Program-made: the position numbers and the translations under genes
From: Pseudomonadales bacterium
GTDB taxonomy: Bacteria; Pseudomonadota; Gammaproteobacteria; Pseudomonadales; UBA7239
Length of the DNA: 64,000 bases
Assembly (NCBI GenBank): GCA_028280345.1
Contig: JANQLY010000005.1
Span: 303,427 to 367,426, forward strand
Reading direction: 5' to 3'
In this document: positions 52,247-64,000 of the stretch, piece after piece
How the letters are laid out: every line of letters starts with the position of its first letter
How positions within the stretch are numbered: the stretch's first letter is position 1
The notes under the pieces: generated by a model
The model's database searches: none
What the model was told of the DNA's origin: nothing
The model's input: only the letters and a program-made list of their open reading frames with translations

Positions 52247-52417
52247 ATGACAAGGCTGGAGCACGCGAGTGCCATTATTACGAGCAGTATTATTGCAGGT
52301 ATCACCATCACAAGTACCGCGATTAAGAGTACCATTATTAAAAAATTTAAAAATAACAGTATTAACAACCTTGAAAGTATTAAAACAGCGAACAAAACCG
52401 AAAAACGTAGTACTTGA
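52247..52417 (+). CDS. Possible 56-aa leader ORF overlapping the DUF1329 gene
   Basis: ATG at 52247, stop at 52415-52417, in a different frame from the overlapping DUF1329 reading frame. The product is rich in Ile, Thr, Ser, Lys and Asn (ASAIITSSIIAGITITSTAI), unlike a normal enzyme. No clear ribosome-binding site. The DNA is AT-rich and low complexity (repeated ATTATTA and AGTACC). It may be a leader peptide or simply noncoding sequence. Confidence 0.25.
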   Translation: MTRLEHASAIITSSIIAGITITSTAIKSTIIKKFKNNSINNLESIKTANKTEKRST

Positions 52418-53903
52418 AAACCATGTACTTAAAAATAATGTATCTGAGAATAAGGCACCCGAAAAAAAAGTAGGATATTGCAAGCCCCGGCAACGCTTCG
52501 CAACCCATGCAGCAGTTCGGCGACCGCGTTGCGGTAATCTGCCCCGATGGTTGTTGAGTACGCTGCTGCTGTTTCTTCTAACTGATGCTGTATTTGCCAA
52601 CGTTTCGGCGGAACAGGCGCACCGCCTCGGTACCGAATTGACACCAATGGGGGCAAACCCTGCTGGCAATGAAACGGGCCAGATACCTCCCTACACTGGC
52701 AAAATCCTCGGTGTACCGGACTGGGTAGACTATGAAGGCACGGGCACGTTTTATCCAAATCCCTATCCTGATGAGAAACCACTGTTTGTTATCGATAGCA
52801 GTAACGTACATCGACACCGGGAACAACTCACCACGGGTATGTTGGAGATGTTTCGTCTTTATCCGGATACCTTTCGCATGCCGATCTATCCGAGCAAACG
52901 CGATACACGCTATAGCGATTTTATTCACCGCAATACGCGCATCAATGCGATGAATGCAGAACTCGTAGAAGACGGCAGCGGTGTGGTGAATGTGTTTGGA
53001 GGTATACCGTTTCCAATTCCACAAAACGGCGAAGAGCTTGCGTTTAATAATCAATATGCACCCAATACCTACGCGACTCGCGGTGAAATTGCCGTGGCCA
53101 CGGTTTATAACAATGGCACCCGCTCACTCACCACGCGCATCGAAGATCGTTATTTTGAATTCTTTGATCCGGAGGTTGAGCGTCACGCCTACTCCGACCT
53201 TGCAGCCCGGGTGATGATTCTCACCACTTCACCCGCCAGAGAAAAAGGCAAGGTGATACTCGTTCATGAATACAGCAACCTGACGAAAAGTCCGCGCAAT
53301 GCCTGGCAATACCTGCCGGGCACACGCCGTGTACGCCGTGCGCCAACTATCTCCTACGACTATCCCGATGGCCCGGGAGGTTTGCGCACCGTTGACGATG
53401 CCTTGATTTTTAACGGTGCAACTGATCGCTTTACCTGGAAAATGGAAGGTGTGCGTGAGTTATATGTGCCTTACAACAACAATCTGCTTGATGACCCGGA
53501 TTTAAGCTACGACGATATCCTTGGTCTGTATCATATCAACCCCGATGTGATGCGTTACGAATTACACCGTTGTTGGGTCGTGGTTGGTGAATTGAAAAGA
53601 GGCAAGCGCCATATCTACAGCAAGCGCCGTATGTATGTAGACGAGGACAGCTGGGCGGGCTTGCTCGCCGAAAACTATGATCGCAGCGGTCAATTGATGC
53701 GTGCCAATATGCGCACCATGGTCAATCTTTACGATATGCCAGGTATGGGGCCACGGGTAGAGATCTATCACGACTTGCAAAAGCAGGCCTACCAGGCGGT
53801 TAATCTGATTAACGAGGAAAAAGGTCCACCAAAAGTGGTCGGTAATATCTGGGATGCCAGCTATTTCACGCCGGCCAACCTGCGAAAACTTGGACGCCGT
53901 TAA
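52269..53903 (+). CDS. DUF1329 periplasmic/outer-membrane-associated protein
   Basis: Mature part (from about residue 112) has the DUF1329 hallmarks: VSAEQAHRLGTELTPMGANPAGN near the start, PYTGKI, and later LPGTRRVRRAPTISYDYPDGPGGLRTVDD and DRFTWKMEGVRELYVPY. A typical signal peptide (PRWLLSTLLLFLLTDAVFA) is encoded about 90 codons into the open frame but has no ATG, GTG or TTG close by in frame, so the start is unresolved; GTG 52269 is the only standard start and gives an odd Val/Lys/Asn-rich leader. The family is often linked to lipid or aromatic-compound handling and sits beside RND transporters in other genomes. Confidence 0.82.
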   Translation: MPLLRAVLLQVSPSQVPRLRVPLLKNLKITVLTTLKVLKQRTKPKNVVLENHVLKNNVSENKAPEKKVGYCKPRQRFATHAAVRRPRCGNLPRWLLSTLLLFLLTDAVFANVSAEQAHRLGTELTPMGANPAGNETGQIPPYTGKILGVPDWVDYEGTGTFYPNPYPDEKPLFVIDSSNVHRHREQLTTGMLEMFRLYPDTFRMPIYPSKRDTRYSDFIHRNTRINAMNAELVEDGSGVVNVFGGIPFPIPQNGEELAFNNQYAPNTYATRGEIAVATVYNNGTRSLTTRIEDRYFEFFDPEVERHAYSDLAARVMILTTSPAREKGKVILVHEYSNLTKSPRNAWQYLPGTRRVRRAPTISYDYPDGPGGLRTVDDALIFNGATDRFTWKMEGVRELYVPYNNNLLDDPDLSYDDILGLYHINPDVMRYELHRCWVVVGELKRGKRHIYSKRRMYVDEDSWAGLLAENYDRSGQLMRANMRTMVNLYDMPGMGPRVEIYHDLQKQAYQAVNLINEEKGPPKVVGNIWDASYFTPANLRKLGRR

Positions 53904-54768: not shown

Positions 54769-54837
54769 ACAATAAATTTTAATTTTTTGCCAGCATTATC
54801 TGGCTTTAATAAATGATAAAAATTACGGGTGTGTATT

Positions 54838-57800
54838 ATGTTTAATTATCGCTTACTAAAAAATACCGGATTATCTCTGTTTATAACTGGACTGGCAGTC
54901 ACATTGACAGGCGTTATGCCGTTACAGACGTGGGCTTCCGCCAGTTCTGTATCGCCTGTCCAGCAGTCGGCAACAATAACGACAATGACAAGCGAACAAG
55001 AGCAGGCAAACGCTGTAAAGCCGACACTGCTATTTATTCCTGGTCTTGGAGAGCCAATGGTTGCCACAGGCCCATCGAGCCCGGAAGACATGCAACAGGT
55101 ACGCGATCTGGTCACGGCTTTTTTTGCGCTGGACGATGTGACAGATACCCGCCTTATCGACGACTACTTTGCGCAGCACCCTGAATCGGTGTGGCAGGTA
55201 GGCTTGTTAACCAACCTGGGTGGGCATTACTACAATAACGGCGCATTCTCCCAAGCCATAGATGCGTGGGAGCAAGCCTGGCAACTGGGCCAATCATCAA
55301 GCGGCAAGCTGGAAATGAAACAGGCCAATCGCGCGTTTGCCGAACTGGTGCGCATGCATGCGAAACTCGGTCATGCCGATAGGCTTGAACAGCTATTGTT
55401 AGTGGAAGGCCGCGATCGCGATATTAGCGGTTCGGCCTTGCAGTTTGTGCGCGGGGCCCACGAAGGGTTGGCTGCGATGAGATTGAATCCGGGAGTGGCC
55501 TACCTATGTGGCCCGGCAGCATTAAGTAACGTGTTGTACTCCATGGATCCGGAGCATCAGGGGCTTGGCTTTTTGGCCGGACTACGCTCCGGCCCGAATG
55601 GCTTTAATTTACAGCAGGTGAATGATATTGCCGGTGAAGCAGGTATGGACTATCGCATGGCGAAACGCGAACCCGGCGCAGCAATACCGGTGCCGTCTGT
55701 GGTGCACTGGAATGTCAATCACTATGCTGCCATCGTTGACGAACACGAAGGCAATTATCATATCAAGGATCCCACCTTTGGCCGTGATCTCTGGGTTTCT
55801 GAAAAGGTGCTTGAGCAGGAGGCCAGTGGCTATTTTGTGGTACCCGTCGAGATGGTGGGCGAGCAGGGCTGGCAGGTTGTCGCCAGCGCTGAGGCAGAAA
55901 GTATTTATGGTCGCGGTTTACCGAGTAACAGTGACGATAACGGCACAACACCTTGCGATGATACCAGTGGCGGAAGTGGTGCTGATGGGGAACCGGGTAT
56001 GCCAGTCTACAGGGCGCATTCGATGCTGGTTAGCCTCAATATTGTGGATACGCCGGTAGACTATACGCCGCCGTATGGCCCGAAAGTTAATAACACCCTG
56101 GTCTATAACCAGCGTGAGTCTAATCAACCGGGTATTTTTCCCTATGTGAATCTCGGTAGTCGCTGGACTGCCCACTGGATTTCCTTTATCCTGGATAATC
56201 CGGATCAATATAATGCCGACGTCAAACGTATTACGGGCGGTGGCGGTGCCGAGATACAGGACTACGATACCTGGGTTCTTAATAGCAGTACGGGTGAACA
56301 TGAACGTTTCTACCTGGCGGAAGCTTGTAATGGTTCAAAACTGGTTAGAACACAGAACTCGCCGCCGATTTATGAGCGTACGCTTGCCGATGGTTCAATA
56401 GAAATATTCAGCTATGATGATGGTGCGGTGTCTCCGGCTACAGAGAGAAGGGTGTTTCTTACCTCGCGTACCGACCCCTTTGGTCATACCATCAATTTCA
56501 CCTATGAAACGATTACCGACACTGGCGGCAGTGATTATATACGTTTGAAGAAAATTACCGATGCGCTCGGGCAGGATACAACCTTGACTTATCGCTCCGA
56601 CGACCCGGATGTATTGCCAGATGCATTGCAAGTCAGTGTGATTACCGACCCGTTTAGTCGCACGGCACAAGTTGGCTATGACAGTAACGACCAGGTGAAT
56701 TCGATCACCGATGCGGCAGGAATCGTGTCCACCTTTACCTACAGCGGTACCAGCGATTTTATCGACAGTATGACCACACCCTATGGCACCAGCACATTTG
56801 ATTATGGTGATGGACAAACTACCAAGGTTAAAGGCTATGCCGATGGGCGCTGGCTGGAAATGACAGATCCGGAAGGTGAAACCGAGCGACTGCAGTTTAT
56901 TAATAGTGGCTCAAATCACAATATTCCAACCTTTCCAGCATCACCGCTCCCGCCGGTAGCAGATATGTATATTTTTGATCGTTACCGCCTTGGTCATCAG
57001 CATGGTCCAATGAACCATGGTCGCAATACCCTCTACTGGGATCAGGAGGCTCACAAGGAGTATGAAGCCTATTACGATATTCACCAGGCGGTGGATTACC
57101 AAACAGCTGTGGTTAAACACTGGCTACATAATCCCTATAACAATGGCTCATTAGGTACCGGGCGCTATCTGGAAAGTATTAAAAAGCCCAACGAAAACCG
57201 GGTCTGGTTTAACTATCCGGGTCAAAGCGATGATCAAGAGGCCGGTGGAATGGCAGATATCCACAAGCCTTCGAAAATAGGTCGAGTACTTGATGATGGT
57301 ACGACCACGCAGATCAAGGAATTCACTTACAACGATAAAACCAGAATCACCTGCCGGGTAAACGGCGAAGGCGATACGTTTGCCTATGAGTACTTCAGCA
57401 ACGACATTGATCTGCAATATGTTAAGCGCCGCAATGATGGCATCCGTGGTTGTACCGCAGCGGCAGTACCTACCGGCTCGGAAACCCAGGCAGAAGCAGA
57501 GGAGCGCGCGTGGGATACCGTGGCCGAGTACGCGTACTACCCGGAAACCACCTACAGCATGAATCATCTGGTCGAAACCTATACTGACGGTGAGGGCAAC
57601 GAAACCGACTTTACCTACAACAACGAGGGGCAAGTAAAAACCGTGACCAATGCACTTGGCCAGGAGACCGAGTACAACTACGACAACGATGGTTACCTGC
57701 TCAATATCAAGGACAAGGAAAACCTGATTACACTGATCACCTTTACCTACGATAGCGCCGGGCGTATTGCAACAGCCACCAATGCCGCCGGTTATGTCGA

Positions 57801-59562
57801 AACCTACAGCTACGACAATCTTAACCGCCTGACCGGTGTGAGTTATCCGGGTTCCACCAGCCACAGCTACGGTTACCTCGATGGCACCGATAAAATGCTC
57901 GACCTTGAACAGCAAACTGATCGCTACGGGGATGAAATCGACTATACCTATGACGGCCAGCGTAATCTTACTGATACCGAAATCTACGACGGCACGATTG
58001 CCGGCGGCACAAAAATTCAGGCGATTAGCTATGGCTACTATGCCAATGGCAAGTTAAAAACCATTACCCACGGTGACAGCTCGGTAGCGAATGACAAACG
58101 CAGTGTCACCACATTTGAACGTGATGGGCAGTCCCGTGTTACTCAGGTGCGTCTCGGTACTGTGGCCAACGCTGACCCCGGCACTCACGAAACCGATTAC
58201 ACCTATGAAAGCACCATTAGCCGTTTGAAAAAAATTACCCATCCGGACGGTGGTGAAACGGAATATAGTTACGACCGTGCGGATCGCTTAAGCAAAGTCA
58301 TTGATGCCAATAATCTGGAAACTCACTATCACTACAATGCGAAAGGCGAACTGGAGCGCGAAGACAGCTACGATCGTGGCACACTCGTCTATGCCTACGA
58401 CCTCGCCGGTAACCTCACTGAAAAGAAAGCCTACAACTGCGAAAGCGGCACAGGTTTCCATAGTGCATTAAGCAGCTGCACACTGATCCAGACCGATGTG
58501 TACACCTACGATGCATTAAATCGCCTCGCCACAATCGACTATGACAACGACAGTACGATTGATCTTACCTACTGCTACGACAGTTACGATAGTGGCATCG
58601 ACCCGTTGGTATGTGACAGTGGCAGCTATGATCACGGCAAGGTGGAAGGGCGTCTCGCCCGTGTCGCCCACAGCGATGACAGCACCTACGATTACAAATA
58701 CGATAGCTATGGTCGCCTCGAGAAAGAGAGTTTCGACCCGGATGGCAGTGGCACCCTCAGCGCGTTTGATACCAGCTACAGCTACAATAGCGCCGGTGAA
58801 CTTACCGCAATCACCAATGCCAGTGGCTATACAATCGATTACACGCGCAGTGATAGCCAGCTGACTGCGGTGGATCTGAGTATTGGCGGGCAGAGCGCTT
58901 CACTCGTTAACACCATCAGCTACCAGCCATTTGGCGGTATCAAGCAATACACCAATGAGCTCACCACCACTAACGATCTGGTACTAACCCGCGCATGGAA
59001 TATGATGGGCCAGTACACCCAGCTTAATATGGATATCAATAACGACGACGGCTACGATATCGACTACGGCTACGATGGCTTTGGCAATATCAACAGCATC
59101 ACCGATGCATGGGCAGGTACAGAAGCCGATCAGGATTTCACCTATGATGCGATGCATCGCCTGACACAGGCCACGGGTATTTATGGCCAGTATGACTACA
59201 CCTACGATAAAGTGGGCAACCGCAAGACCCGTCAGGTGCAGCGTTTTGAACCCGCGCATCCCACGGTAAAACTGGTCGACTACACCGAAACCTATTACTA
59301 CGACGATGGCACTGGTGGCGGCGCCACCGCGCCGAGCCCTTACGCAAGTAACCGCCTGATGAAACTCGAGCGCCACGATAACCAGCTAACGGCTCCCAAT
59401 ACTTATATGCGGCGGCGCAGCTTTGTCTACGATGATCGCGGCAATACCACCGAAGATAAACGCGAAATACTCAATAGCGATGGTTCTACCGCCTCCACAA
59501 CCACCCTGAGCCCTTCCTACGGTGATAACAACCGTATGGAATCAGTCGACGTGACACCATAA
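54838..59562 (+). CDS. RhsA: secreted RHS/YD-repeat protein with C39-like peptidase domain
   Basis: 1574 aa. A signal peptide (about 1-36) is followed by a helical TPR-like segment (about 80-190) and a C39-like cysteine peptidase domain with Cys224 (YLCGPAALSN), His295 (NVNHYAAI) and Asp311 (IKDPTFG), the three catalytic positions of bacteriocin-processing-type C39 peptidases. From about residue 400 the protein is an RHS region with many YD repeats (for example YDNLNRLTG, YDYDLAGNLTEK-type), rich in Tyr and Asp. It stops at 59560-59562 after SYGDNNRMESVDVTP, before the conserved RHS core, which is supplied by the next gene. ATG 54838 is preferred over GTG 54829. Likely the shell half of a polymorphic toxin. 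Confidence 0.88.
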   Translation: MFNYRLLKNTGLSLFITGLAVTLTGVMPLQTWASASSVSPVQQSATITTMTSEQEQANAVKPTLLFIPGLGEPMVATGPSSPEDMQQVRDLVTAFFALDDVTDTRLIDDYFAQHPESVWQVGLLTNLGGHYYNNGAFSQAIDAWEQAWQLGQSSSGKLEMKQANRAFAELVRMHAKLGHADRLEQLLLVEGRDRDISGSALQFVRGAHEGLAAMRLNPGVAYLCGPAALSNVLYSMDPEHQGLGFLAGLRSGPNGFNLQQVNDIAGEAGMDYRMAKREPGAAIPVPSVVHWNVNHYAAIVDEHEGNYHIKDPTFGRDLWVSEKVLEQEASGYFVVPVEMVGEQGWQVVASAEAESIYGRGLPSNSDDNGTTPCDDTSGGSGADGEPGMPVYRAHSMLVSLNIVDTPVDYTPPYGPKVNNTLVYNQRESNQPGIFPYVNLGSRWTAHWISFILDNPDQYNADVKRITGGGGAEIQDYDTWVLNSSTGEHERFYLAEACNGSKLVRTQNSPPIYERTLADGSIEIFSYDDGAVSPATERRVFLTSRTDPFGHTINFTYETITDTGGSDYIRLKKITDALGQDTTLTYRSDDPDVLPDALQVSVITDPFSRTAQVGYDSNDQVNSITDAAGIVSTFTYSGTSDFIDSMTTPYGTSTFDYGDGQTTKVKGYADGRWLEMTDPEGETERLQFINSGSNHNIPTFPASPLPPVADMYIFDRYRLGHQHGPMNHGRNTLYWDQEAHKEYEAYYDIHQAVDYQTAVVKHWLHNPYNNGSLGTGRYLESIKKPNENRVWFNYPGQSDDQEAGGMADIHKPSKIGRVLDDGTTTQIKEFTYNDKTRITCRVNGEGDTFAYEYFSNDIDLQYVKRRNDGIRGCTAAAVPTGSETQAEAEERAWDTVAEYAYYPETTYSMNHLVETYTDGEGNETDFTYNNEGQVKTVTNALGQETEYNYDNDGYLLNIKDKENLITLITFTYDSAGRIATATNAAGYVETYSYDNLNRLTGVSYPGSTSHSYGYLDGTDKMLDLEQQTDRYGDEIDYTYDGQRNLTDTEIYDGTIAGGTKIQAISYGYYANGKLKTITHGDSSVANDKRSVTTFERDGQSRVTQVRLGTVANADPGTHETDYTYESTISRLKKITHPDGGETEYSYDRADRLSKVIDANNLETHYHYNAKGELEREDSYDRGTLVYAYDLAGNLTEKKAYNCESGTGFHSALSSCTLIQTDVYTYDALNRLATIDYDNDSTIDLTYCYDSYDSGIDPLVCDSGSYDHGKVEGRLARVAHSDDSTYDYKYDSYGRLEKESFDPDGSGTLSAFDTSYSYNSAGELTAITNASGYTIDYTRSDSQLTAVDLSIGGQSASLVNTISYQPFGGIKQYTNELTTTNDLVLTRAWNMMGQYTQLNMDINNDDGYDIDYGYDGFGNINSITDAWAGTEADQDFTYDAMHRLTQATGIYGQYDYTYDKVGNRKTRQVQRFEPAHPTVKLVDYTETYYYDDGTGGGATAPSPYASNRLMKLERHDNQLTAPNTYMRRRSFVYDDRGNTTEDKREILNSDGSTASTTTLSPSYGDNNRMESVDVTP
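59486..59562 (+). repeat. 77-bp 3' end of rhsA, copy 1
   Basis: The last 25 codons plus stop of rhsA. The same 77 bp recurs at 63452-63528 with one mismatch (A/T). The similarity then continues, more diverged, through the signal peptide and InlB-type region of the following lipoprotein genes. Candidate recombination arm. Confidence 0.92.
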
Positions 59563-59576
59563 GGGAGGAGAAGACA

Positions 59577-61112
59577 ATGAATATGAATATGGATACTCCA
59601 AACGTTAACACCCTGAAAGCCTCAACTCTGAGAACGTTTCCGGGTATGTGGCTTTTCCTGGTCATACTGCTTGGTCTGTCCTCGTGTAAATTGGAAATTG
59701 ATGCGAGCGGCTCCGGCTCGGGTAATGTACAAACAGTTAGCGGCACCATTGACTGTGACTACGACGGTAGTAACACGAGTAACGACTGTGCGCAGGAATA
59801 CGTTAATGATATTACCGAGTGTGATAACTATGTATTGGGTGGTGCCGATACCTGGGCGGAATTGCCGGAGTGTACCGAAGTGCTCGGTACCTATAGCGAA
59901 GACTTCCTTGCAACACCGGATGAAAACAGTACCTTCGGTGGTTGGCACCAGAACTGTATTGGTGGGGCCGGTTGTAGCTATTCCGTTAACAGCGTGGATA
60001 ACGACGACACCAATATTGTTGAGGTTGAGGCAAAGTTTGAGCCGGAAGCGACCCCGGAAGATGTCAGCTATACCTACAACCATCTCGGGCAGCGTAAAAG
60101 CAAAACCGTGGGCACATCACCCAACGAAGTCACTACCTACTATATTTACGGCCCGGGTGGTGAATTACTGGTAGAGCAAACCGATGAATCACCTGACCCA
60201 TTAATCAAAACCTATATTTATATGGATGGTGAGCTAACAGCCATCCATGAAAAACAGGGCACAAGTGAGAATCTGCACTATGTGATCAATAATCACCTCG
60301 GCCAGCCGATGTATATGATTTCACAGAACAACGCCTTGCATTTTGAGCGCTATCAGGAGCCATTTGGCAAAACCTATAGTCAGTATCAGGTGAATGCGAT
60401 CAGTGATCACAATACCCGTTTTCCTGGGCAAACCTATGAAGTTGAGACTGGTTACCACCAAAATTGGCATAGGGATTATGATCCTGAAACGGGCAGATAT
60501 TTGCAGAGTGATCCATTGGGGTTATATGATGGGCCGAATACCTATGCGTATGTACAGGGTAATCCGGTTAATTATATTGATCAAACCGGGTTATTCGGAA
60601 CAACTGTTGATGCCTATTGCCGGACCAGACCTGATCAGTGTTACCATCTGGTTGATGATTTGTCGACGTCAAGAACCCAATGCTCGGATGGGAGTAGTTG
60701 GGTAGAACCGTTGGCACCACTTATTGCGGTGGCGGCGATGGCAAGAGGCAGAGGTGGTCGAGGTGTTTCAGGCAGAGGATCGTCCGGTGGAGGTAGGAAT
60801 AGTGATACGACTTCCAACACTCCGTCTAAACCCGATCCTAACCGTACCGCTGATGATCCACTGCCTAGAGATGCAAATGGAGTACCTATTCCAGAATCAA
60901 GGTATCCTCACACTCAGTTGGGAACGAGGCCAGGAAAGAATAGTGGTGGTCCATATAGGCAAGCCAGAGAATTTGATGAAAATGGAAATCCAGTTAGGGA
61001 TATTGATTTTACCGACCATGGGCGAGGGCAGCCTAATCCTCATCAACATAGGTATGTGCCTAACCCAACAGGAGGCACTCTCAGAAGGTCAAAAGACCAT
61101 GAATCACTATAG
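59577..61112 (+). CDS. RhsB1: lipoprotein with InlB-type repeat, RHS core and toxin-like C-terminus
   Basis: 511 aa. Lipoprotein signal with lipobox LSSC (Cys37, Lys at +2, compatible with outer-membrane sorting). Residues about 45-160 are a divergent InlB B-repeat (SGTIDCDYDG...TPDENSTFGGW...GGAGCSYSV...VEAKFEP) interrupted by a Cys-rich insert (ECDNY...WAELPEC). Final RHS repeats (YTYNHLGQRKSKTV) lead to the RHS-associated core RDYDPETGRYLQSDPLGLYDGPNTYAYVQ at about 299-327 and the boundary DQTGL at 335-339. The variable tip has a Gly/Arg linker and a terminal domain with DIDFTDHGRGQPNPHQH (about 475-491), resembling a widespread polymorphic-toxin tip (possibly Ntox24 class). AGGGAGGAG precedes ATG 59577, 14 bp after rhsA. 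Confidence 0.87.
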   Translation: MNMNMDTPNVNTLKASTLRTFPGMWLFLVILLGLSSCKLEIDASGSGSGNVQTVSGTIDCDYDGSNTSNDCAQEYVNDITECDNYVLGGADTWAELPECTEVLGTYSEDFLATPDENSTFGGWHQNCIGGAGCSYSVNSVDNDDTNIVEVEAKFEPEATPEDVSYTYNHLGQRKSKTVGTSPNEVTTYYIYGPGGELLVEQTDESPDPLIKTYIYMDGELTAIHEKQGTSENLHYVINNHLGQPMYMISQNNALHFERYQEPFGKTYSQYQVNAISDHNTRFPGQTYEVETGYHQNWHRDYDPETGRYLQSDPLGLYDGPNTYAYVQGNPVNYIDQTGLFGTTVDAYCRTRPDQCYHLVDDLSTSRTQCSDGSSWVEPLAPLIAVAAMARGRGGRGVSGRGSSGGGRNSDTTSNTPSKPDPNRTADDPLPRDANGVPIPESRYPHTQLGTRPGKNSGGPYRQAREFDENGNPVRDIDFTDHGRGQPNPHQHRYVPNPTGGTLRRSKDHESL

Positions 61113-61135: not shown

Positions 61136-61612
61136 ATGTTTCCTGAATTAATGCTAAAAGTTACTAGTAAGTGTTTGGATAATGACTCGGTTGAATGTAC
61201 AGGTGAGCAGCTATCAATGCTGGTAAATATTATCTCTGTAACATTTGAAGATTTAACCTGGTACGCTTCGGATGTTGATATGATGCCATACATGGATTTT
61301 TGGAAAATGTATCATGACGATGATCTTAAAATAGTAGGAGAAACTAAAAAGCTTGAGGATATGTCGAGAATTGTTCCGCAATTCCTTTCAGGTGTATTCA
61401 TAGCAATACAGAACTCAGATATAGGAGGTCCAAGTATAAAAAATTTCTCAACCGAAGAGGAAATGTTTGTGGATATAGGGAATGCTTCTATTCAAATAAG
61501 AGCATTTGATACAAGTTACTTTGAGGTTTATTTATCTAAAAAAGAAGGTTCAGAAGGTCTTCTGGAAAATCTTTCGTGTGCTGAGCTTGTTGAGAAAAAT
61601 AAACAGTCTTGA
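61136..61612 (+). CDS. Candidate immunity protein for the RhsB1 tip
   Basis: 158-aa acidic soluble protein without recognised domain (MFPELMLKVTSKCLDND, WYASDVDMMPYMDFW). AGGAAGG at 61123-61129 supports ATG 61136. It begins 23 bp after the toxin-tip gene, the usual place for the cognate immunity gene in RHS loci, and is AT-rich compared with the chromosome. Immunity function is inferred from position. Confidence 0.65.
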   Translation: MFPELMLKVTSKCLDNDSVECTGEQLSMLVNIISVTFEDLTWYASDVDMMPYMDFWKMYHDDDLKIVGETKKLEDMSRIVPQFLSGVFIAIQNSDIGGPSIKNFSTEEEMFVDIGNASIQIRAFDTSYFEVYLSKKEGSEGLLENLSCAELVEKNKQS

Positions 61613-63332: not shown

Positions 63333-63451
63333 ATTATGTACTGCACATTATGGAATTCAGATTTTTTCATAGAAGAATAGAAATTTTAATTAATCAGAGT
63401 CGGTAAAAGTACGATTAGTAGATATAAATAGGACTGCAGACTATAAAAGTA

Positions 63452-63528
63452 CTACCGCCTCCACTACCACCCTGAGCCCTTCCTACGGTGATAACAACCG
63501 TATGGAATCAGTCGACGTGACACCATAA
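63452..63528 (+). repeat. 77-bp 3' end of rhsA, copy 2
   Basis: Same sequence as 59486-59562 with a single mismatch, including the rhsA stop codon, but with no rhsA gene in front of it. It ends 14 bp before the ATG of the second lipoprotein module. The sequence upstream (63333-63451) is unrelated AT-rich DNA in which I see no gene. Confidence 0.92.
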
Positions 63529-63542
63529 GGGGGAGAAGAACG

Positions 63543-64000
63543 ATGAATATCAATAGCACTAAAGCATTAAAAAACTCTACCCTGAGCACTTCCCTGAAAA
63601 CTTTGGCTTGCCTCGTCATATTACTTGGCCTGTCCTCGTGCAAATTGGAAATCGATGCGAGTGGTTCCGGCTCGGGTAATGTACAAACAGTTAGCGGCAC
63701 GATTGACTGTGACTATGATGGCAGCAGCACGAGTAACGACTGTGCACAGGAATACGTTAATGATATTGCCGAGTGTTATAATCACGAATCCACACCGGAT
63801 CCGACAGACTCGGATGAATGGAGCGAACTGCCGGAATGTACCGAAGTGGGCATGGCAGAAGACATCACTGAATGCTCGAACTACGATGCCAATGATCCTG
63901 CAAAAGATGAGTGGCATGAGTTATATCCTGTGTGTATCCCGGCGGTTACCGAAAACTTTGTCGCAACCCCCGATGAAAACAGCACCTTTGGTGGCTGGCA
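63543..64000 (+). CDS. RhsB2: second lipoprotein/InlB-repeat tip module, partial
   Basis: Runs off the window; at least 152 codons. ATG 63543 after GGGGGAGAAG. Lipobox LSSC at Cys33 and the mature start CKLEIDASGSGSGNVQTVSG are the same as in RhsB1; the InlB-type repeat follows (SGTIDCDYDGSSTSNDC ... TPDENSTFGGW). In place of the single Cys-rich insert of RhsB1 there are two related units (ECYNH...DEWSELPEC and ECSNY...DEWHELYPVC). The RHS core and tip would lie beyond 64000. Without a promoter or an rhsA of its own it may be a silent cassette. Confidence 0.85.
   Translation, partial: MNINSTKALKNSTLSTSLKTLACLVILLGLSSCKLEIDASGSGSGNVQTVSGTIDCDYDGSSTSNDCAQEYVNDIAECYNHESTPDPTDSDEWSELPECTEVGMAEDITECSNYDANDPAKDEWHELYPVCIPAVTENFVATPDENSTFGGW

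What the first reader, a model, noticed from the sequence alone, without database searches (positions are those of the whole stretch)
54838..61112. RHS toxin split into a C39-peptidase shell protein and a lipoprotein core/tip protein
The YD-repeat region ends with a stop at 59562 and the remaining repeats and RHS core continue in a separate gene that starts 14 bp later with its own lipoprotein signal and an InlB-type repeat. A normal RHS protein is one polypeptide that folds a closed shell around its tip. Here the two halves would be secreted separately and meet in the periplasm or at the cell surface, with the tip half lipid-anchored. The C39-like domain in the shell half has all three catalytic positions and could process the partner. 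I do not know a described system with this division of parts.
Basis: partly seen in the sequence, partly recalled or inferred. Interest (0 to 1): 0.93.

Follow-up and report, generated by a model that had tools for sequence, protein, structure and literature searches.

The report
Split RHS toxin with lipoprotein cap
In this bacterium an RHS-type protein capsule is encoded by two neighbouring genes, one for a predicted shell and one for a predicted closing cap with its likely toxin, each starting with a predicted export signal, and the two halves would meet outside the cytoplasm to form one closed capsule that could take different caps.

Summary
The split is real and not a sequencing slip. Gene A (54838-59562) has YD repeats and no RHS core. 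Gene B (59577-61112) starts 14 bp later in another frame, with a lipobox, an InlB-like region, the last YD strands, the RHS core and a variable C-terminus. Four further A/B pairs in the same genome (A genes 37-47% identical) break at the same place, 12-15 bp apart. Four more B genes stand without an intact A. B codons show purifying selection. Two A homologues from other sources end at the same point. Folded separately, A matches the wall of solved RHS cocoons and B their C-terminal seal. The C39 idea fails as a general mechanism: C39 occurs in one of five A genes and in many single-chain RHS proteins. A two-chain cocoon has a precedent, TcB/TcC, cut mid-wall. New are the cut at the seal, the separate Sec and lipoprotein signals, and spare caps that are complete genes. 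The lipoprotein form was found in this genome only, apart from one database protein and two relics. Relatives carry other splits with Sec-type starts. Assembly, lipidation, location and toxicity are inferred.

The parts
54838..59562 (+). Gene A, predicted shell: signal-like start, C39, YD repeats, no core (GTG at 54829 is an alternative start)
54838..54945 (+). Predicted Sec signal peptide of A (by eye)
   Evidence: sequence; cleavage point not computed
55507..55839 (+). C39 domain of A with Cys, His and Asp motifs
56035..59559 (+). RHS wall of A that was modelled (residues 400-1574)
59563..59576 (+). 14 bp between A and B with a purine-rich ribosome-binding stretch
59577..61112 (+). Gene B, predicted lipoprotein cap
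59577..59687 (+). Signal and lipobox of B, Cys37 followed by Lys
59688..60050 (+). InlB-like spacer with conserved cysteines
60051..60593 (+). Last YD strands and RHS core; D312 and D335 invariant
60594..61112 (+). Variable C-terminus of B, predicted toxin, no family found
61136..61612 (+). Candidate immunity gene by position only; no family found
63449..63542 (+). Copy of the 3' end of A in front of B2
63543..64000 (+). B2, second lipoprotein cap gene, cut by the contig end

Best explanation
Genes A and B encode what their fold matches indicate are complementary pieces of one RHS cocoon, a wall and a closing cap, each with its own predicted export signal, and the two would likely be exported separately by Sec and assemble outside the cytoplasm into a closed capsule around the predicted toxin at B's C-terminus. 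B would be lipidated at Cys37 and sorted to the outer membrane (Lys at +2, by the known sorting rule, recalled), with the InlB-like region as spacer. The cap corresponds to the part that in solved RHS proteins spirals into the barrel and seals it, and it keeps the two aspartates of the RHS autoprotease, so B would likely clip its own toxin inside the assembled cocoon. Because a cap is a complete gene with start, signal and lipobox, the spare B genes of this genome could load the same shell without DNA recombination. Shown: gene structure, domain content, the same break in five pairs, purifying selection on B, fold matches of each half taken apart. Inferred: lipidation, location, A-B binding, autocleavage, toxicity, and use of one shell by several caps.
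Against: No complex was modelled. B's model is confident only around residues 160-260 and A's last 63-199 modelled residues are unaligned in the rows used, so the seam is not resolved; in 4 of 11 single-chain entries the A and B ranges overlap. A and B identities do not clearly co-vary over the five pairs (r 0.44, 13 of 120 permutations as high). A formal ribosome-site match is met by 3 of the 5 paired B genes, with 22% expected at random places. The lipoprotein form was not found in other genomes searched, nor was an A tail ending in this way. One B (C19) fails the lipobox pattern. This B's second autoprotease motif reads DQTGL, and 3 of 9 B proteins have an insertion between the motifs. No toxin or immunity family was found.
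Confidence: 0.5

Rival explanations
1. B works alone as a lipoprotein toxin, in the manner of SitA of myxobacteria, and A is a separate secreted protein (adhesin, or accessory like SitB); no common cocoon forms.
For: Complete B genes occur without A; SitA toxins are lipoproteins with variable ends, some with an accessory gene upstream (PMC5562445, passages).
Against: B holds only the seal part of an RHS cocoon, A lacks exactly that part, and five of five A genes are followed by a B.
Confidence: 0.27
2. The pair is a broken single-chain RHS gene or an assembly error.
For: A homologues with the core in one chain are frequent: 169 of 204 listed.
Against: Same break in five diverged pairs, each with signal and start on B; purifying selection on B; same end in two outside homologues; different frames here.
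Confidence: 0.03
3. The pair is cargo of the T6SS or part of a Tc toxin.
Against: Pfam lists no PAAR, SpvB or TcdB domain for A; both halves start with signal sequences, which neither T6SS cargo nor, as recalled, TcB and TcC carry. A TcA gene was not looked for.
Confidence: 0.06
4. C39 of A cuts B.
For: Cys, His and Asp motifs are present in A and in the seven homologues checked.
Against: C39 found in one of five A genes; Pfam or NCBIfam list none in the four others; frequent in single chains.
Confidence: 0.05

Closest known systems
TcB/TcC cocoon of Tc (ABC) toxins
   Same: One RHS cocoon made of two chains, the second with core, autoprotease and variable toxin end (PMC8765631, passages); A matches the TcB chain and B the TcC chain of 4igl.
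   Different: TcC carries a long part of the wall: B's match begins only at residue 398 of 664 in TccC2. Here the second chain has only the seal, plus lipobox and spacer. No lipid anchor is mentioned in the passages read.
Single-chain RHS effectors (RhsA, RhsP, Tse5, Tse15)
   Same: YD wall, C-terminal seal and core.
   Different: One chain, exported by T6SS; no signal peptide or lipobox described in the passages read.
C39-bearing single-chain RHS proteins
   Same: Same N-terminal region and YD wall as A.
   Different: Many continue into the core in one chain, e.g. P0039 and Pseudomonas citronellolis L176.
SitA lipoprotein toxins of myxobacteria
   Same: Lipoprotein with variable C-terminus and accessory gene upstream (PMC5562445, passages).
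   Different: No RHS cocoon is described in the passages read; SitA travels by outer membrane exchange.
Bacterial teneurin-like proteins
   Same: Gram-negative members are predicted lipoproteins with a YD shell (PMC13018210, passage).
   Different: One chain, the lipid at the start of the shell protein and not on the cap.
Orphan rhs toxin ends of Salmonella
   Same: Spare toxin ends beside or apart from a full gene.
   Different: Those lack start and export signals and need recombination with the main gene (PMC3967940, passages).

Membership tests
RHS/YD-repeat proteins | YD repeats and RHS-associated core | tested here: met
   PF05593 in A (116.5 bits, cut-off 22); TIGR03696 in B (80.1, cut-off 32.5); on two proteins, not one
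RHS/YD-repeat proteins | Autoprotease aspartates around DPxGL motifs | tested here: inconclusive
   D312 and D335 invariant, 23 apart; Tse15 cleavage mutant has its two Asp changes 22 apart (title); second motif is DQTGL here; cleavage not tested
RHS polymorphic toxins | Variable toxin end with a cognate immunity gene | tested here: inconclusive
   C-termini differ between B proteins; no toxin or immunity family found
Tc toxins | Cocoon made of two chains | tested here: inconclusive
   Separate models match TcB and TcC chains of 4igl; binding not tested
Tc toxins | SpvB/TcdB-type domains in the first chain | tested here: inconclusive
   Not listed by Pfam for A, but the fold resembles 6p0x and 4igl_C
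Tc toxins | TcA translocation subunit | not tested
   No search was made
T6SS Rhs effectors | N-terminal PAAR domain | tested here: not met
   Pfam scan of A lists only RHS_repeat and Peptidase_C39 at E up to 0.1
SitA toxins | Lipoprotein signal on the toxin | tested here: met
   PS51257 pattern at Cys37; signal only, lipidation not testable here
SitA toxins | Homology of the N-terminal part to SitA; delivery by TraA/B outer membrane exchange | not tested
   No comparison or search was made
Teneurin-like proteins | FN-plug and NHL propeller before the YD shell | tested here: inconclusive
   No NHL listed by Pfam for A; FN-plug not tested

The most novel reading that the evidence does not exclude
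A modular weapon assembled outside the cytoplasm: one secreted RHS shell is closed by any of a family of membrane-anchored, toxin-bearing lipoprotein caps, so spare caps are brought into use by assembly in trans and not by gene recombination; and RHS cocoons made of two or three separately Sec-exported chains, cut at different points, are a widespread and undescribed class in this bacterial order.
Probability: 0.35. Interest if true: 0.87.

Novelty: new variant of a known kind. Interest (0 to 1): 0.72.

Why it matters
RHS toxins are usually seen as one chain that folds round its own toxin. If shell and cap are made and exported apart, the toxin must be enclosed after export, so loading, sealing and release of a cocoon could be studied with two separate parts. 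It would give free-standing toxin caps a use, and a case where toxin exchange happens between proteins and not between genes. A lipid anchor on the cap would explain how a Sec-exported RHS toxin stays on the producing cell.

Tried and rejected
C39 as the means of treating the partner: rejected as general. Sequencing error or decay: rejected. Co-variation of A and B over five pairs: inconclusive.

Lipoprotein part elsewhere: the scan of named genomes found no relative. In 390 genomes of the order 45 had some match to the alignment, but outside this genome none covers the lipoprotein part and the YD part together; the longest are 121-190 of 191 positions in G001 (two genes without lipoprotein start) and G010, and 10-132 in G292. 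In 369 genomes of the class 7 matched; in the six others no match is longer than 55 positions. Among the 27 outside proteins, P0008 covers 90% of the query and has lipobox, spacer and core; the others cover at most 67%; I read 13 of the 27 sequences.

A tail elsewhere: in 381 genomes of the order 97 matched, the five own A genes near E 1e-100 and the best outside at 5e-17. The outside matches nearest the end of the tail (G285, G319, G283) showed no break of this kind: G285 and G283 run on into the core, and the second G319 locus has broken frames without a signal. The scan of named genomes with A homologues gave two loci: a single-chain protein with core in Pseudomonas citronellolis, and a Terriglobia contig with only a short match.

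Of 204 listed A homologues my own core profile finds a core in 169; the 35 without include the window's own protein, P0036, P0037, P0038 (another kind of coreless shell), partial proteins and a Ralstonia group ending in discoidin domains. My automatic scan for split pairs gave 13 rows in 212 overlapping loci: five are this genome's pairs and three have no signal (L132, L173, L207); it missed pairs seen by eye, so no rate can be taken from it.

Literature: the listings (titles and abstract starts) show none on an RHS wall and core exported as separate chains or on a lipoprotein RHS cap; the library holds open-licence papers only. Of PMC13018210, PMC8765631, PMC3482391, PMC5562445 and PMC3967940 I saw passages, none whole.

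Full report
What is there. The window is the end of contig C16 of an unnamed 4.0 Mb genome in 26 contigs. A carries YD repeats and a C39 match and no RHS core. B carries a lipobox, a cysteine-bearing InlB-like region, a few YD strands, the RHS core and a C-terminus without known family. The two lie in different frames.

Not an accident. The same genome holds four more pairs with the same anatomy, on contigs C13, C14, C9 and C19. The A genes are 37-47% identical over their last 520 residues, so these are old duplicates, and each stops 6-20 residues after the same NR[MI] motif. Spacers are 14, 12, 15, 15 and 12 bp for C16, C13, C14, C9 and C19. The stretch before B is purine-rich in all five; a formal match of four or more bases to the ribosome-site consensus is met by 3 of 5, against 22% of random places. 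Nine genes with a Cys-Lys lipoprotein start were seen, one cut by the contig end; 8 of 9 fit the PS51257 lipobox pattern (recalled), C19 does not, and Lys follows the Cys in all nine. Of ten comparisons among five close B genes, five are not saturated at synonymous sites and give dN/dS of 0.05-0.15 for the lipoprotein part; four of these five still have dS above 1, so the values are rough. A homologues P0036 and P0037 (39% identity over 97-98%) carry the C39 motifs and end at the same point. Their neighbouring genes could not be seen.

Autoprotease. D312 and D335 are invariant in nine B proteins (eight of this genome and P0008) and in 17 aligned core proteins. They are 23 residues apart; a cleavage mutant of Tse15 in the PDB has its two Asp changes 22 apart (title). 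Three of nine B proteins have an insertion between the motifs, and this B reads DQTGL at the second, so activity is open.

C39. The region was found in one of the five A genes; Pfam or NCBIfam list none in the other four. It is frequent in core-bearing single chains. It is best seen as an inherited part of one shell lineage.

Spare caps. Complete B genes stand without an A nearby at C20 (two) and C3; B2 follows a copy of the 3' end of A. The first three are 57-84% identical to the window's B in the shared part, so the window's A would be their likeliest shell; that is inference. Fragments with core and without signal lie at C10 and C13, and one cut by a contig start at C6. In Salmonella, orphan rhs ends lack start and export signals and need recombination (PMC3967940, passages). 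Here the spare caps look like complete genes.

A wider theme. In the same order I saw shells followed directly by a separate cap gene with a Sec-type start and the core: G014 (L078), G100 (L157), G072 (L162), G126 (L165), G273 (L194) and G189 (L200), and in this genome at C11 (two caps in a row) and at C2, where a 165-aa gene lies between shell and cap. Others are cut inside the wall, with a second Sec-type start: G055 (L069), G319 (L206), G152 (L210), G189 (L209) and, less surely, G107 (L212). G189 appears to have three pieces. In G030, G014 and G063 single chains carry a membrane stretch and then a signal-like stretch between wall and core. These loci were picked for short frames or good matches and give no frequency. 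Signals were judged by eye and by a hydrophobicity rule.

Verdict. The system is a variant of RHS toxins whose nearest precedent is TcB/TcC. The joint cocoon, lipid anchor, surface location and toxicity remain to be shown. The genome also holds a T6SS sheath gene, but Pfam lists no PAAR domain for A and both halves carry export-type starts.

Noticed in passing
L066 1916-6862 and 9092-13921; L063 2-1399; L114 8235-9929; L111 1-3204; L079 3160-7854: Single-chain RHS proteins of relatives with a membrane stretch followed by a signal-like (in L063 lipobox-like) stretch between wall and core, as if one chain were to yield two.
   Followed up: partly
L078, L157, L162, L165, L194, L200; own C11 (L042 13638-15515) and C2 (L110 7649-8533): Core-only cap genes with Sec-type starts behind coreless shells, in several families of the order; at C11 two caps in a row behind a 3998-aa shell with an RTX-like end.
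   Followed up: partly
L069 470-5329; L206 4520-9395; L209 334-5640; L210 652-5459; L212 3196-8255: RHS walls cut in the middle into two genes, the second with its own signal-like start; L209 seems to have three pieces.
   Followed up: partly
L065 4641-5060 and 5573-6487 (G001): Two B-like genes without lipoprotein start in a genome of the same family.
   Followed up: partly
P0009: Sec-type start, cadherin repeats, then the same YD strand and core as B: a cap with another spacer.
   Followed up: no
P0157, P0159, P0160, P0163-P0171, P0173: C39-RHS proteins, several named as Ralstonia, ending in discoidin domains without a core by my profile.
   Followed up: no
L037 2-805 (contig C6 start): Core fragment 94% identical to B at a contig start; whether it continues B2 is unknown and was not tested.
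   Followed up: no
window 52269-53903: DUF1329 (LolA-like) protein gene upstream of the pair; no link was tested.
   Followed up: no
L178 (G000:C15:79499-80395): T6SS sheath gene VipB in the same genome.
   Followed up: no
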